Below, piece by piece: positions 50,417-59,224 of a stretch of DNA of 64,000 bases. Position numbers and translations under genes: made by a program. The notes under the pieces were generated by a model. That model was not told the DNA's origin and did no database searches. It worked only from the letters and a program-made list of their open reading frames with translations. Source of the stretch: Arthrobacter sp. SLBN-112. GTDB lineage: Bacteria; Actinomycetota; Actinomycetes; Actinomycetales; Micrococcaceae. Position 1 is the first letter of the stretch, and each line of letters opens with the position of its first letter. The stretch spans positions 3,906,001-3,970,000 of the forward strand of contig NZ_JAUSXY010000001.1 of assembly GCF_030944625.1 (NCBI RefSeq), given 5' to 3'.

Positions 50417-51514
50417 ATGCGAATGTTTGGTAAAACAGGAAAGGCTGCGGCAGTTGCTGCGATTGCGGCCCTGGCTCTGACGGGTTGCGGCCGCGCTGAC
50501 AATTCCGGCAGCGGATCCAGCAGCGGCGCCAGCGGCTTTCCCCAGAACTCCGACATCGGCGTCGCGCTTCCCCAGAAGACCAGCGAGAACTGGGTCCTCG
50601 CGGAGAAGCTGTTCAACGATGGGCTCAACGGAGCCGGCTTCAAGGCCGACGTCCAATTCGCCAATGGCGGCGTTTCGGAGCAGCAGAACCAGATCAGCGC
50701 CATGATCACCAAGGGTGCGAAGGTTATCATCGTGGGTGCCATCGACGGCGCCCAGCTGGGCACGCAGCTGAAGCAGGCCAAGGACTCCGGCGCCACTGTC
50801 ATTGCCTATGACCGGCTGTTGCTCAACACGCCGGACGTGGACTACTACGTGGCCTACGACAACTTCAAGGTCGGCGTACTGCAGGGCCAGGCCCTGCTGG
50901 ACGGTCTGAAGACCAAGAAGCCGAACGGGCCGTACAACATCGAGCTCTTCGCGGGCTCCCCTGATGATGCCAACGCCAAGGTCTTCTTCGACGGCGCCAT
51001 GAGTGTCCTGCAGCCGAAGATCGACGACAAGACCCTCAACGTTGTCTCCGGCCAGAAGACGTTCGAACAGGCCGTCACCCAGGGCTGGAAGGCCGAGAAC
51101 GCCCAGAAGCGCATGGACACCCTGCTGGCCGGCAGCTACACCAGTGCCTCACTGGACGGCGTGCTGTCCCCGAACGACACCCTGGCCCGTGCAATCCTGA
51201 CCTCGGTCAAGGCTGCCGGCAAGCCGTTGCCGATCGTGACCGGACAGGACTCCGAGGTTGAATCGGTCAAGTCCATCCTTGCCGGGGAGCAGTACTCCAC
51301 CATCAACAAGGACACCCGCAAGCTCGTGGAGCACGCAATCACCATGGTCAAGGATCTCCAGGCCGGCAAGACGCCTGAGATCAACGACGACAAGTCCTAC
51401 AACAACAAGGTGAAGACCGTTCCGGCCTACCTCCTGCCCCCGGTCATCGTGACCAAGGACAATGTGAAGACGGCCTACGTCGACGATCCCGTCCTCGGCC
51501 CGATCACCAAGTAG
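50417..51514 (+). CDS. chvE: ChvE-type sugar-binding lipoprotein
   Basis: 365 residues, periplasmic-binding-protein type 1 fold. The lipobox LALTGC acylates C24, followed by a Ser/Gly linker. Mature-part motifs GVALPQKTSENWVLAEKLF, ITKGAKVIIVGAIDGAQL and VIAYDRLLLNTPDVDYYVAYD match the multiple-sugar-binding ChvE family (glucose, galactose, arabinose, xylose). It is last in the operon, whereas in Agrobacterium the binding protein gene comes first. Confidence 0.93.
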   Translation: MRMFGKTGKAAAVAAIAALALTGCGRADNSGSGSSSGASGFPQNSDIGVALPQKTSENWVLAEKLFNDGLNGAGFKADVQFANGGVSEQQNQISAMITKGAKVIIVGAIDGAQLGTQLKQAKDSGATVIAYDRLLLNTPDVDYYVAYDNFKVGVLQGQALLDGLKTKKPNGPYNIELFAGSPDDANAKVFFDGAMSVLQPKIDDKTLNVVSGQKTFEQAVTQGWKAENAQKRMDTLLAGSYTSASLDGVLSPNDTLARAILTSVKAAGKPLPIVTGQDSEVESVKSILAGEQYSTINKDTRKLVEHAITMVKDLQAGKTPEINDDKSYNNKVKTVPAYLLPPVIVTKDNVKTAYVDDPVLGPITK

Positions 51515-51548
51515 CGCCCTTTAGGAGAGCCGGATAGAACCGGCAGCA

Positions 51549-51589
51549 GGAAAGCCCGGTCCCTTCGTGTGAAGTGGGCCGGGCTTTCC
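51549..51589. terminator. Bidirectional terminator between chvE and pectate lyase pseudogene
   Basis: GGAAAGCCCGGTCCC / GGGCCGGGCTTTCC with one bulged base, 34 nt after the chvE stop and 9 nt from the end of the convergent pectate lyase reading frame. The stem ends in AAA/TTT on both strands. Confidence 0.7.
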
Positions 51590-51598
51590 CGCGTCTGC

Positions 51599-52900
51599 CT
51601 ACTGCTGGACCCGGAGCACTCCCGGTCCGGTGAACTGCAGTGCGTGGTTCTTCACGGCCTCCGGTGTGGTGAATGCCTTGTAGCCGTAGGCGTCGGCAGG
51701 ATTCCAGCCCACATCCGTGGTGAAGTCCCAGCCGGTCCAGTCCGCGGCAGGAGTTCCGGTCTCTTCCGCCCCAGCCAGAGCCTCCGCACGATGTTGCTCA
51801 AAGGAGGCACGGGCGACGGCGTTCAGATCGGCTTCGGACCCGTTGAACCACGACCCCGTATCGCTGAAACGGTTGCCGTTGTAGCTGCTGACCATGACGC
51901 TCTGGTCAGCGCCGGGTCCGGTGTATTCGAAGGCATTGCGTTCGGAATAGATCCGTGATTCATAGCCGGCGCCGAGGAAGTAGCTGTGGCCGCCCTGCCC
52001 TTCGCTGATCATGGGGTACTCGGGATCATCCGTGCTGCCAACGAAGTAGTTGTTCACCACATGGACCTCGCCGAAGCGTACGCGCGGTCCGCGCTGCTGG
52101 ATGTTCTCGAAGAGGTTTCCGATATATGTGACACGAAGCTTCCCGCCGTCCTTGTCCACGTGCTCATCACCCGATCCCAGGAGCATGGTCTTGTCGTGGT
52201 TGGACAGGCTGCTGTTCGAAACGGTGACGAAATCGGTGCCGTCCTTAAGGTCCAGCAGTCCATCGTGCCGATTGGCAGGCTTGTTCCGGAAACCCATCGG
52301 CGCCTCACTGTCGGGGAACCTGCCGTCGGACAGGTGGACGTGGTCTATCCAAACGTGGTTGGACGTCACTGAAGAGACAGCATCAAAGCGCGCGTTCCAG
52401 GCTCCGTCGCCGTCGTCGGGAGACCATGTGGTGAAGAAATCCACGGGCGCTTCAATGCTGAGGTTGCGAATGACCACGTTCGAGGCGCTAAGGATCACGA
52501 TGTTGGCGCCCACGAAGCCAGCGCCGCCATCCACCCCGACGAGGGTGGTGTTGCTGGGGATGCTGACCTCGATCTGCCGCTTCATGTTGTTGCTGCCCGT
52601 CTGGCGCAGTTGGCGCTGCTTTTTGCAGTAATCGAAGGCCTGGTCGCTCCACACCTTGCCCTCCGGCCCGAAGCAGGACATGTACTTGGTGATGTCGTAT
52701 CCAGGCGCGTAATCCTGTTCCCCGAGGATGCGACCCTCCGGTGCCTGGTTGCCGTCTATGGTGCCGCTGACGTAAACCACCTTCGGCGCCGTGGGCTCGC
52801 CATGGTTGGCCAGCGCAGCCTTCAGCCCGGCAAGTGTGCTCACCTCATAGGTGTTTGCGGTGGCTCAACCGGCCGTGGTCCAGTCCGCGGGGACCATCCC
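51599..52900 (-). pseudogene. Pectate lyase (PL1 family), 5'-truncated
   Basis: The open frame from a GTG at 52843 encodes 414 residues of a PL1 pectate lyase. It has the core NHVWIDHVHLSDG, SNHDKTMLLGSGD and the Arg region QRGPRVRFGEVHVVNNYF, and the Ca-binding and catalytic parts look intact. But there is no signal peptide. Upstream in the same frame coding similarity seems to continue (ADWTTAG, then TANTYEV), interrupted by TGA at 52865-52867. It is lost at about 52900, where an inverted-repeat element begins. A secreted enzyme without export signal is unlikely to work, so I call it a decayed gene. A functional internal start cannot be excluded. Confidence 0.7.
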
Positions 52901-53128
52901 CTTCTCCGTCGCTTAGACACAACGCATAGAGGCCCCATCGGTCGCTGAGCGACCTCCTGGACCTGATGCGCCGCGATGCGCTCCTACGAGAAGGGGTTGG
53001 TCCCGGCTGGTGCCTGGGCACAAGGAGGGGCGCGGTTCTTCGCGTAGGAGCGCATCGCCGACCAAAGCGGCGGGGAGGTCGCCCGGCGACCGGAACGCCG
53101 CGTCGGGAGGTGTCTAAGCGACGGCGAA
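52901..53128. repeat. Pair of inverted, structured about 92-bp repeats
   Basis: Copy 1 is 52901-52993 (plus orientation), copy 2 is 53038-53128 (inverted), with a 44-nt spacer. Three blocks are conserved at matching spacing: A CTTCTCCGTCGCTTAGACAC (19/20), B GGTCGCTGAGCGACCTCC (16/18, itself a hairpin) and C starting GCGATGCGCTCCTACG (20/21). The segments between the blocks have diverged. No gene lies inside. The left end abuts the broken pectate lyase gene. Confidence 0.8.
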
Positions 53129-53291
53129 GGGCCGCGGCCCGCCGCGGTGAACCTACCGCAGGACCTGCGATCTGCCGGAAATCTCACTTCACAGCACAAA
53201 CACAGGTTTGGCCGGATTCCTGCACAGCATGCCCGGGGAGGGTTGATTCGAAGCCGGCCCTCCGCGCCGGCACCTGAGTCCTAGGAGTAAC

Positions 53292-54728
53292 GTGAGCGTC
53301 CTCGCCCGAAGCGTAGGCAATGCCTTCAGAAACAAGGTCCGCACCGCTGCTGTTGTCGCGGTCCTGGCCGTCGCCATTGGATTGGCCCTGGCCATGCTGG
53401 TGGCAAACCAGGCAGTCGGAGCTAAAGTCCAGGAGCTCAACGCCTCCGTCGGCACCGTCCTGACCGTCAACCCTGCCGGCGGGCAAGGTTTTGAAGGCGG
53501 CGGGGAGCCGCTCACCGCCGACCAGGCAGCCACCGCCGCTGCCGTGCCCAACGTCAGTGCCGTCGTCGGGACCTCATCGCTCCGCCTCCGCAATGCCGCT
53601 CAAGCCGCAGCGCAGGCAGCGGCGGGCCAGACAGGCCAGGCCGGTCCCGGCGGCGGGCAGGGCGCCCCCGGCGGCCAGTCCGCAGCCACCCTGACCACCA
53701 GCCTGACTGCGGCGGTGGACGCCGGCACGCTGGGCAACCGCAACCAGCAGGCCAACGGGACCACGGGATCCACCGGAAGCACGCAGGCGGTCAGGTCCCT
53801 GCCAATCACCGCCACCGGGATCGGCGCCGAGGTGGACAGCACGGGCAAGGCGCTGAACATCACGCAGGGCTCCGGACTTGGCGACTACTCAGCAGCATCA
53901 ACCAGCGCGCTGCTCGGCACAACCCTGGCTGAGAAGAACAACCTCGCCATCGGTTCCACCTTCACCATCAACGACCAGACCTACACGGTCGCCGGACTGT
54001 TCGACGCAGGCACCGCGTTCGGCAATAACGCCGTGTACGTGACGCTGCCCACCGCCCAGACCCTGGCCGGGACGCCCAGTGAGCTGTCCAGCATGATTGT
54101 GACGGTCAACTCGATGAACAATGTGGCCTCCACCAAGACGGCACTGCAAACGGCGCTCGGCACCGACAAGGCAGACGTCACACAGGGCCAGAACCTGCAG
54201 ACTGCCGTCAGCTCCCTGGACAGCGTCAAGAACATCTCCTTCATCGCATTCATCGCCGCCCTTGGCACTGCAGGCCTGATTATCCTGCTCATCATGGTGA
54301 TGCTGGTCCGGGAGCGGCGCCGCGAGATCGGCGTGCTGAAAGCCATCGGCGCGCCTAACCGCACCATCGGCCTCCAGTTCGTCCTGGAAGCACTGGTGCT
54401 CGCCGCCATGGGCAGCGCAGTGGGAGCCGCCATCGCATCATTCGCCAGCGGCGGTATTGCTTCGGCCCTGATCAGCAGCAACAGCACCACCACTGCCGCC
54501 ACAACCACCGGCCGCGGGTTCCCGGGCGGGGCAGGGGGCTTCCCCGGCGGCCAGGGCGGTCCCTTTGGCGGCGCCTCCCAGCTGTTGAACTCCGTGACCG
54601 CGAGCGCATCACCTGAAGTCATCGCCGGTGGCATTGCTGCAGTGTTCGGCGTCGCCATCGTCGGCGCCCTGGTTCCCGCGCTGCTCACGGCGCGTATCCG
54701 TCCCATCGAAGTCCTGCGAGGAGAATAG
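53292..54728 (+). CDS. FtsX-like ABC transporter permease (MacB type)
   Basis: 478 residues. One membrane segment near the N-terminus (AAVVAVLAVAIGLALAMLV), a large extracellular MacB-type domain (about residues 45-300), then three C-terminal segments beginning FIAFIAALGTAGLIILLIMVMLVRERRREIGVLKAIGA, the FtsX signature. Two low-complexity parts stand out: Gln/Ala/Gly around residues 100-135 and GFPGGAGGFPGGQGGPFGG between the last membrane segments. The GTG at 53292 has AGGAG 5 nt upstream. Functions with the ATPase 2 nt downstream. Confidence 0.92.
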   Translation: MSVLARSVGNAFRNKVRTAAVVAVLAVAIGLALAMLVANQAVGAKVQELNASVGTVLTVNPAGGQGFEGGGEPLTADQAATAAAVPNVSAVVGTSSLRLRNAAQAAAQAAAGQTGQAGPGGGQGAPGGQSAATLTTSLTAAVDAGTLGNRNQQANGTTGSTGSTQAVRSLPITATGIGAEVDSTGKALNITQGSGLGDYSAASTSALLGTTLAEKNNLAIGSTFTINDQTYTVAGLFDAGTAFGNNAVYVTLPTAQTLAGTPSELSSMIVTVNSMNNVASTKTALQTALGTDKADVTQGQNLQTAVSSLDSVKNISFIAFIAALGTAGLIILLIMVMLVRERRREIGVLKAIGAPNRTIGLQFVLEALVLAAMGSAVGAAIASFASGGIASALISSNSTTTAATTTGRGFPGGAGGFPGGQGGPFGGASQLLNSVTASASPEVIAGGIAAVFGVAIVGALVPALLTARIRPIEVLRGE

Positions 54729-57784: not shown

Positions 57785-59224
57785 ATGAGTACCAACCTTC
57801 GCAGGGGGCTGCTTGGCACCCTCTTTGCCGGCGGCCTTCTGGCCTTCGGCTGCACCGCCGCAAACGCAGCGGACACAACCAGCGGGACTGACCTTTCCGC
57901 GTCCGCCCTCATCTCGGCGGCGCCCACTGATTCGACGTCGTTGGGCCTGCTGGGTGACCCAACGCCGTCGAGCTCAACGGGCGTCGCCGCCGCCGTGGAC
58001 GTCAACCTCGGCACCAACGCCACCGGCACAGGCACCGGGACCACCGTCGACGCAGCCGTAACCCTCGGCACCGCCACCGACCCCGCAACCACCGGCACCA
58101 CCGACCTGGCAGCCGCAGCGGACGTCAACCTCGGCACCAATGCCACCGGCACAGGCACCGGGACCACCGTCGACGCAGCCGTAACCCTCGGCACCGCCAC
58201 CGACCCCGCAACCACCGGCACCACCGACCTGGCCGCCGCAGCGGACGTCAACCTCGGCGTCGGCACCAACGCCACCGGCACAGGAACCGCCACCGTTGAC
58301 GCAGCCGTAACCCTCGGCACCGCCACCGACCCCGCAACCACCGGGACCACCGACCTGGCCGCCGCGGCAGACGTCAACCTCGGCCTCGGCACCAACGCCA
58401 CCGGCACAGGAACCGCCACCGTTGACGCAGCCGTAACCCTCGGCACCGCCACCGACCCCGCAACCACCGGGACCACCGACCTGGCCGCCGCAGCGGACGT
58501 CAACCTCGGCCTCGGCACCAACACAGGCACCGGGACCACCGTCGACGCAGCCGTAAACCTCGGCACCGCCACCGACCCCGCAACCACCGGCACCACCGGC
58601 CTCGCCGTCGACGCAGCCGTAACCCTCGGCACCGCCGCCGACCCCGCAACCACCGGAACCACCGACCTGGCAGCCGCGGCAGACGTCAACCTCGGCCTCG
58701 GCACCAACACCACCGGTGACACGGCGAGTGGAGTCGATGCCAGCGTTGACCTGGGCACCGGAACTGCAGGCAGTGGCGGCCTGGATGCCGCCGCCGACCT
58801 CGGCATTGATCTCGGCACCGGACTTGGCGTTGACAACAGCACGGGCACCACAGGCCCGGCCGACGGCACCACCGGAGATTCCGGAACCCTTGATCCGGGA
58901 ACCAGCACCCCCGGCGCAGGCGATCCTGCGGGCAACGGCAGCGATGGCCCGGCCAGCGATGCCGGCACCCTTGACCCCGGGACCAACAACGCGGGCACGG
59001 GCGACGTCCCGGCAGCTTCCGCAGGCTCAAGGGCCGTCAGCGGAGCCATCGCCACCGTCACGGCCCCGCTCAGCAACCCTGCCACGGGAAGTTCCGCCCT
59101 CGGCAACACCGGGACAGCCAACACCAGCCTCGCCAAGACCGGCTGGGATGGATCCCTGGTGCCCCTGGCCCTGCTGCTCCTGGTGGCAGGACTCCTGGCT
59201 CTCCGCAAGCGCAAGGTCTCTTGA
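57785..59224 (+). CDS. Tandem-repeat surface protein with LAXTG sortase signal
   Basis: 479 residues. A signal peptide (GLLGTLFAGGLLAFGCTAANA) precedes about five tandem 40-42-residue repeats with consensus AAADVNLG..TNATGTGT / TVDAAVTLGTATDPATTGT, rich in Thr, Ala, Gly and Asp and without Cys or aromatic residues. Degenerate repeats and a Gly/Thr/Pro-rich stalk follow. The C-terminus SLAKTGWDGSLVPL, hydrophobic segment and RKRKVS tail form an LAXTG cell-wall sorting signal of the class E sortase type. AGGAG lies 8 nt before the ATG. Probably a wall-anchored adhesive or structural protein; Thr density suggests O-glycosylation, which is speculative. Confidence 0.85.
   Translation: MSTNLRRGLLGTLFAGGLLAFGCTAANAADTTSGTDLSASALISAAPTDSTSLGLLGDPTPSSSTGVAAAVDVNLGTNATGTGTGTTVDAAVTLGTATDPATTGTTDLAAAADVNLGTNATGTGTGTTVDAAVTLGTATDPATTGTTDLAAAADVNLGVGTNATGTGTATVDAAVTLGTATDPATTGTTDLAAAADVNLGLGTNATGTGTATVDAAVTLGTATDPATTGTTDLAAAADVNLGLGTNTGTGTTVDAAVNLGTATDPATTGTTGLAVDAAVTLGTAADPATTGTTDLAAAADVNLGLGTNTTGDTASGVDASVDLGTGTAGSGGLDAAADLGIDLGTGLGVDNSTGTTGPADGTTGDSGTLDPGTSTPGAGDPAGNGSDGPASDAGTLDPGTNNAGTGDVPAASAGSRAVSGAIATVTAPLSNPATGSSALGNTGTANTSLAKTGWDGSLVPLALLLLVAGLLALRKRKVS
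57998..58720 (+). repeat. Tandem DNA repeats of 123-126 bp inside the surface protein gene
   Basis: Units begin at GACGTCAACCTCGGC: 57998, 58121, 58244, 58370, 58496 and, after an incomplete unit, 58682. Spacing is 123, 123, 126 and 126 bp. The third codon positions are almost identical between copies, which points to recent duplication or gene conversion. Confidence 0.9.

What the first reader, a model, noticed from the sequence alone, without database searches (positions are those of the whole stretch)
52841..53128. Inverted pair of structured repeats at the broken end of a pectate lyase gene
Two ~92-bp inverted copies share three conserved blocks (A, B, C) at the same spacing, while the sequence between the blocks has diverged. 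Block B is itself a small hairpin whose loop differs between copies. Selection or copying of blocks, rather than a plain recent duplication, is implied. The pectate lyase frame shows in-frame TGA at 52865 and loses coding character within about 20 bp of the element's left end, as if the element inserted into or replaced the signal-peptide region. It could be a non-autonomous mobile palindrome or a transcribed double hairpin RNA.
Basis: partly seen in the sequence, partly recalled or inferred. Interest (0 to 1): 0.72.

Follow-up and report, generated by a model that had tools for sequence, protein, structure and literature searches.

The report
Paired folded repeats at gene ends
The two inverted blocks are one pair from a family of folded repeats that mostly sit at gene ends in Arthrobacter and its relatives, and in this genome such a pair stands where a close relative keeps the start of a pectate lyase gene.

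Summary
Window 52895-52999 and 53032-53135 are two inverted ~105-nt units of a repeat family (101.5 and 103.4 bits), found in 120 of 150 genus genomes and 33 of 197 family genomes, weak matches included.

The conserved blocks are loops and stems of a fold: 29 of 34 pairs change on both sides. It is more stable in 137 of 141 units (controls 121 of 258) and gains G-U and tandem G-A pairs. So each unit looks like a strand-specific structured RNA. Of 40 multi-unit loci among 100, 39 are pairs whose folds read apart; one has a third unit.

In Arthrobacter 58 of 83 resolved loci lie between convergent genes and none between divergent ones. In the window a pair stands where the closest relative found (98% identical) has the lyase promoter and signal-peptide codons.

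RAYT, IntI, Rfam, promoter and literature searches gave no explanation. Mobility and transcription are inferred; the mechanism of spread is open.

The parts
52895..52999 (-). left unit, type I; strand given is the one that folds (structured strand)
   Evidence: R1 101.5 bits on +, R2 105.7 bits on -; fold -56.4 (complement) vs -42.1 kcal/mol
53032..53135 (+). right unit, type II; strand given is the one that folds
   Evidence: R1 103.4 bits on -, R2 82.1 bits on +; fold -64.1 vs -50.7 kcal/mol
   Evidence: read; P3 pairs 94.2% of cells in 46 units
53077..53091 (+). apical hairpin P3 of right unit
   Evidence: read
53000..53031 (.). spacer between the divergently folding units
   Evidence: its best BLAST matches among fetched loci are the spacers of lyase-site pairs (L156/L007, L086)
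52861..53185 (.). segment (325 bp) without counterpart in G147, G026, G151; it stands where they carry about 370 bp with the lyase promoter and N-terminal codons
51599..52843 (-). pectate lyase remnant (PF00544), about 81 N-terminal residues of the intact relative missing
53292..54728 (+). FtsX/MacB-type permease on the other side of the pair

Best explanation
The feature is a pair of units of a non-coding, structured repeat family confined, as far as tested, to the bacterial family of Arthrobacter (Micrococcaceae; name recalled). Each unit folds on one strand into an RNA-like rod. From the outside in it has a 12-bp stem P1, a 3x1 internal loop, a 5-bp stem that is either Watson-Crick or holds tandem G-A, an invariant 4x5 internal loop (GCAU / UCUAA in the Arthrobacter units), stem P2 with G-U pairs, and an apical part that varies by type. 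In Arthrobacter, units mostly sit at gene 3' ends with the folded strand antisense to the gene they abut; in pairs the two folds point away from each other. Inferred: the fold is recognised (by a protein, or as a catalyst) and the family is copied as single units or pairs to new gene ends by machinery supplied in trans. In this genome a type I/II pair took the place of the promoter and signal-peptide codons of a pectate lyase, leaving a gene whose product probably cannot be secreted. Shown: family, fold, covariation, strand preference, arrangement, replacement. Inferred: transcription, recognition, copying mechanism.
For: Family: 120 of 150 genus genomes, 33 of 197 family genomes in 8 of 32 genera, 4 of 297 order genomes by a core pattern, 3 of them in the family. 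Fold: 29 of 34 pairs with both-side changes, 0 of 500 shuffles; on the complement strand 21 of 40 pairs and 91.0% of cells paired against 82.1% on the other strand. Arrangement: 39 of 40 multi-unit loci among 100 are + then -, the 40th is + - - (one of the 39, L158, rests on a weak overlapping 28.8-bit second match). Position: 58 convergent, 25 tandem, 0 divergent, 16 at contig edges, 1 inside a gene, of 100. Replacement: among 30 fetched loci, the 5 with units have lyase matches starting at residue 58-82 of the intact query; the 11 with a lyase and no unit start at 1-49. The window pair groups with the lyase-site pairs of two other genomes (UFBoot 93), beside some of the phoH2/GNAT-site pairs.
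Against: A sigma-70-like promoter before the folding strand was found in 0 of 60 solo units, with no A+T peak; none in the window region. In 18 loci of other genera the orientation rule is not seen (5 of 10 tandem solos agree) and one locus is divergent. P2 of type II shows no G-U/A-C bias (0.79 vs 0.76). Models of the two strands score held-out units nearly alike (complement higher in 14 of 20). No mobilising gene, target duplication or clean junction was found. The three lyase-site pairs in the tree form one clade, so independent gains at that site are not shown. G-T and G-A pairs also form in DNA, so single-stranded DNA is not excluded.
Confidence: 0.62

Rival explanations
1. A DNA-level mobile palindrome (MITE or ssDNA hairpin element) whose bottom strand folds as single-stranded DNA and is recognised by a recombinase or HUH enzyme, somewhat like attC sites or REP hairpins. 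The RNA is irrelevant.
For: Long site-specific arms; position at gene 3' ends with the bottom strand folding; no promoter found; DNA parameters also favour the complement (134 of 142 units).
Against: No RAYT/Y1 transposase in G000 and in only 1 of 37 genus genomes; no integron integrase above cut-off in 39 genomes. Wobble and tandem G-A usage is usual for RNA (recalled).
Confidence: 0.22
2. A bidirectional terminator or 3'-end stabilising element. Units insulate convergent genes and are exchanged with other hairpins at the same spot.
For: 58 of 83 resolved sites are convergent. Of 22 resolved phoH2/GNAT gaps without a unit, 7 carry a plain hairpin and 11 another structured repeat (genomes partly chosen for lacking units).
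Against: No terminator-like site in 52860-53190. Terminators need no invariant internal loops. The sense (mRNA) strand is the less stable one. The window site is upstream of both genes.
Confidence: 0.1
3. About history only, not exclusive of the others: at the lyase site the pair is old and inherited. G147, G026 and G151 regained an intact lyase start by recombination, so nothing moved recently.
For: Lyase-site pairs of three genomes form a clade and share spacer sequence.
Against: G147 is 98.1% identical to the window across 860 bases of the lyase, and the three relatives nearest to G000 there are intact. Junction residues differ: 82, 58/59, 72/76.
Confidence: 0.3

Closest known systems
ERIC / IRU repeats of Enterobacteriaceae (recalled, no source text read)
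   Same: Intergenic imperfect palindromes of about 100+ nt, shared positions across species, insert-bearing variants, no known transposase, suspected RNA fold.
   Different: Different sequence and host group. Here strand-specific covariation, invariant internal loops and divergent pairs are seen; 1-10 matches per positive genome (lower bounds).
REP/REPIN elements with RAYT transposase (search listing and abstract start only: PMC3116915)
   Same: Extragenic hairpins, inverted pairs with a short spacer, non-coding.
   Different: Units are about 105 nt with conserved internal loops; no RAYT gene in the host; few copies.
Integron attC sites (recalled)
   Same: At gene 3' ends, bottom strand folds, variable apical structure.
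   Different: No IntI above cut-off; outer stem varies and inner loops are conserved.
DUF3800-XI RNA motif (RF02975)
   Same: Weak cmscan hit at 53015-53084, 16.2 bits vs cut-off 37.8.
   Different: Below cut-off; 0 DUF3800 genes in G000, and the one genus genome of 37 with DUF3800 has no unit match.

Membership tests
REP/REPIN-RAYT | cognate RAYT (Y1_Tnp, PF01797) in the genome | tested here: not met
   0 in G000; 1 of 37 genus genomes including G000
REP/REPIN-RAYT | inverted pairs of hairpin repeats | tested here: met
   39 of 40 multi-unit loci among 100 are inverted pairs, 1 is a triple; 60 loci are solo
MITE | non-coding repeat at non-orthologous sites | tested here: met
   39 of 116 named loci lie away from the phoH2/GNAT, ABC-F/TetR and lyase/FtsX genes
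MITE | target-site duplication and precise empty site | tested here: inconclusive
   window pair is a replacement of about 370 by 325 bp, no duplication seen; other sites not dissected
MITE | related autonomous transposon | tested here: inconclusive
   only insertion-sequence genes near two loci; no systematic search
integron attC | integron integrase IntI | tested here: not met
   TIGR02249 above cut-off in 0 of 39 genomes; all 39 have weaker, sub-cut-off matches
known Rfam RNA | score above a curated threshold | tested here: not met
   no unit reached a gathering score; (15 loci, one tRNA only)
intrinsic terminator | G+C stem followed by a T run | tested here: not met
   none in 52860-53190; the 2 sites found lie at 52602-52619
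structured ncRNA | covariation beyond shuffles, better on one strand | tested here: met
structured ncRNA | a transcript | not testable with these tools
   no expression data held

The most novel reading that the evidence does not exclude
The unit is a new small self-cleaving ribozyme class, or the RNA of a non-autonomous element that spreads through an RNA copy into gene ends. Two conserved internal loops between freely varying stems, a variable apical part, no fixed gene context, strand-specific folding and head-out pairs would all fit.
Probability: 0.08. Interest if true: 0.88.

Novelty: new variant of a known kind. Interest (0 to 1): 0.56.

Why it matters
Short palindromic repeats of bacteria are often treated as DNA elements. 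This family carries a test that separates the two readings: mismatches are tolerated mainly as G-U on one strand. It gives a defined motif, invariant loops and natural insertion variants, so RNA function and mobility can be tested directly in soil bacteria. It also shows a concrete case of such a repeat in place of a secreted enzyme's start.

Tried and rejected
DUF3800-linked RNA: weak hit only, gene absent. REP/RAYT. Integron. Phage or plasmid origin: pattern 0 in viral contigs, 0 matches in plasmids. An insertion sequence beside two loci (L045, L049; IS3-type by recall, no family search made) as the mobiliser: in L045 it lies between the two units with ends of its own, so I took it as a separate insertion; L049 was not dissected. 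Import of the pair into G000 by recombination over the lyase: on both sides the flanks are nearest G147 among the matches seen (98.1% and 90.8%). My first view that the folded strand is the one that runs with the upstream gene was dropped. Comparing covariance models of both strands gave little.

Dropped rows: 1 of 142 units under 95 nt; 2 of 22 other-genus hits (L309, L310, which lack the CTTAGACAC core); units with the ~57-nt insert were left out of A1 and of the pair tree; only loci with exactly two units of 80-110 nt were kept (34 pairs), so the lyase-site pair of L156 is not in the tree. Searches used 100 of the 116 named loci. In some searches I chose 15 of 40 genomes because they lacked units, so their counts are not frequencies. 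Many loci are orthologous and not independent. Match counts are lower bounds, since only some candidates per genome were scored.

Literature: searches listed no paper that appears to describe the family; only listings and abstract starts were seen, and one passage of PMC12306157, a table row that counts REP-like sequences in Arthrobacter livingstonensis; whether these units are among them was not checked. The library is open-access only.

Full report
What is there. The window lies in one contig of 4,386,623 bases. A model search of this genome gives 4 matches: the two window units, one unit at 3,836,652 between a TetR and an ABC-F gene, and a degenerate 59-base remnant at 3,884,502 (28.8 bits) in the phoH2/GNAT gap. 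The window units are 52895-52999 and 53032-53135 in opposite orientation.

A family. With the window pair as query, 57 of 99 genomes (own included) had a BLAST match; the six outside the genus are marginal (E 2.8e-4 to 9.7e-4). A covariance model from 46 units of 20 genomes (A1) finds units in 120 of 150 genus genomes and in 33 of 197 genomes of the family, in 8 of 32 genera. Shorter versions of about 70-91 nt occur in other genera; the weakest matches are doubtful, and two that I read (L309, L310) lack the core. A core pattern that fits only short and middle-sized units was met in 4 of 297 genomes of the order. Three belong to the window's family; the fourth is a single match with an A+T-rich loop that I take as chance, and the reversed control pattern was itself met in three of the listed genomes. 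Viral contigs and plasmids gave none.

Anatomy. Type I and type II differ in the middle stem. Eight of 64 units in 40 fetched loci carry an insert of about 57 nt after CTTAG. Covariation is strong: 29 of 34 pairs have changes on both sides, which 0 of 500 shuffles reach.

Which strand. Mismatches in P1 are A-C far more often than G-U (102 to 14 over 142 units). After allowing for base composition, G-U is at 0.14 and A-C at 0.60 of expectation in P1; P2 of type I is similar (0.25 and 0.77), P2 of type II shows no bias (0.79 and 0.76). The raw excess is seen in left, right and solo units alike. A-C on one strand is G-U on the other. The complement is more stable in 137 of 141 units (mean -58.1 vs -47.3 kcal/mol), while neighbouring control segments show 121 of 258. 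In 25 type I units the complement gives -60.2 and the other strand -37.7 kcal/mol. The complement structure pairs 91.0% of cells against 82.1% for its mirror image; both have 21 of 40 pairs with two-sided changes. It has an invariant G-U (25 of 25), G-C/G-U exchange at two further pairs, and two adjacent positions that are Watson-Crick in 7 of 25 and, as read from the alignment, tandem G-A in 18 of 25. Units of other genera fold the same way, complement more stable in 17 of 20. This argues for a strand-specific nucleic acid, most simply RNA. Against it: no promoter-like sequence before the folding strand in any of 60 solo units, and models of either strand score held-out units nearly alike, the complement higher in 14 of 20.

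Where units sit. Of 100 named loci (100 of the 116), gene calling of my own gives 58 convergent, 25 tandem, 0 divergent, 1 inside a gene and 16 at contig edges; among 18 tandem solos the folding strand opposes the genes in 16. In 18 loci of other genera this is not so clear: 11 tandem, 3 convergent, 1 divergent, 1 inside, 2 at edges, and only 5 of 10 tandem solos follow the rule. Of 116 named loci, 43 abut phoH2 and/or GNAT, 31 ABC-F and/or TetR, 3 the lyase and 39 none of these (Pfam names). Of the 40 loci with more than one unit, 39 are pairs whose folding strands read apart and one has an extra unit; one of the 39 rests on a weak, overlapping second match. In 40 orthologous phoH2/GNAT gaps, 17 show a unit match (three of them weak), 22 do not and 1 could not be read; of the 22, 7 hold a plain hairpin, 11 a second structured repeat and 4 something else (15 of the 40 genomes were picked for lacking units).

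The lyase. The window lyase (PF00544) has an open frame of 421 codons against 514-544 in its seven closest homologues. Window 51501-52860 and 53186 onward align with G026, and 325 bases stand where G026 has 370. G147, whose contig length equals that of a contig of Arthrobacter sp. 135MFCol5.1, is 98.1% identical over 860 bases of the lyase and has no unit there. Of 30 loci fetched around the site, 5 (the window's own included) carry units and their lyase matches start at residues 82, 58, 72, 59 and 76 of the intact query. Eleven have a lyase and no unit and start at residues 1-49, where divergence of signal peptides may also shorten the match. The other 14 have no lyase match. The window pair groups with two other lyase-site pairs (UFBoot 93, 34 pairs in the tree), so the pair was probably copied to this site once and then inherited or passed on, with later erosion of the junctions.

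Interpretation. The evidence supports a structured repeat family with an RNA-like, strand-specific fold and slow movement between gene ends. RAYT, integron integrase, DUF3800 and known Rfam families do not explain it. ERIC and attC comparisons rest on recall. Function, transcript and transposing agent remain to be shown.

Noticed in passing
L353 (own genome C1:3884400-3885500) and L314, L316, L320, L322, L323, L324, L328, L337, L340, L344, L350: A second structured repeat with a different core (TCTGCGTGCTGGCTCGTTCCTCGCC...GACGCACGCTGCCGG) and site-specific arms stands in the phoH2/GNAT gap, in 11 genomes without a unit and in the window's genome beside the remnant; it shares GCTCGTTCCTCGC with the apical part of short units of other genera. 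No match in the window with up to 3 mismatches.
   Followed up: partly
L045 6096-6566 and L049 4117-4917: Transposase genes (IS3-type by recall) beside units in two genomes; in L045 the insertion sequence lies between the two units of a pair.
   Followed up: partly
L143, L049, L045, L121, L111, L184, L189: Copies or short arrays of GGTGAGAGAGCGT near units, and recurring flanks like AGGTGAC..CGCACAAGCCGG and CCGGCGAACCCAACCACGGC outside the modelled fold.
   Followed up: no
L041, L047, L052, L059, L060, L062, L067: Eight units with an insert of about 57 nt at one fixed point next to the conserved internal loop.
   Followed up: no
L259, L277 (genomes G169, G173): The FtsX gene was not found beside the lyase; the sequence beyond the pair (or half pair) resembles the oxidoreductase of window 55559.
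   Followed up: no
window 57785-59224: Protein with about five 126-base (42-residue) tandem repeats and a C-terminal LAKTG end that looks like a surface anchor (motif recalled).
   Followed up: no
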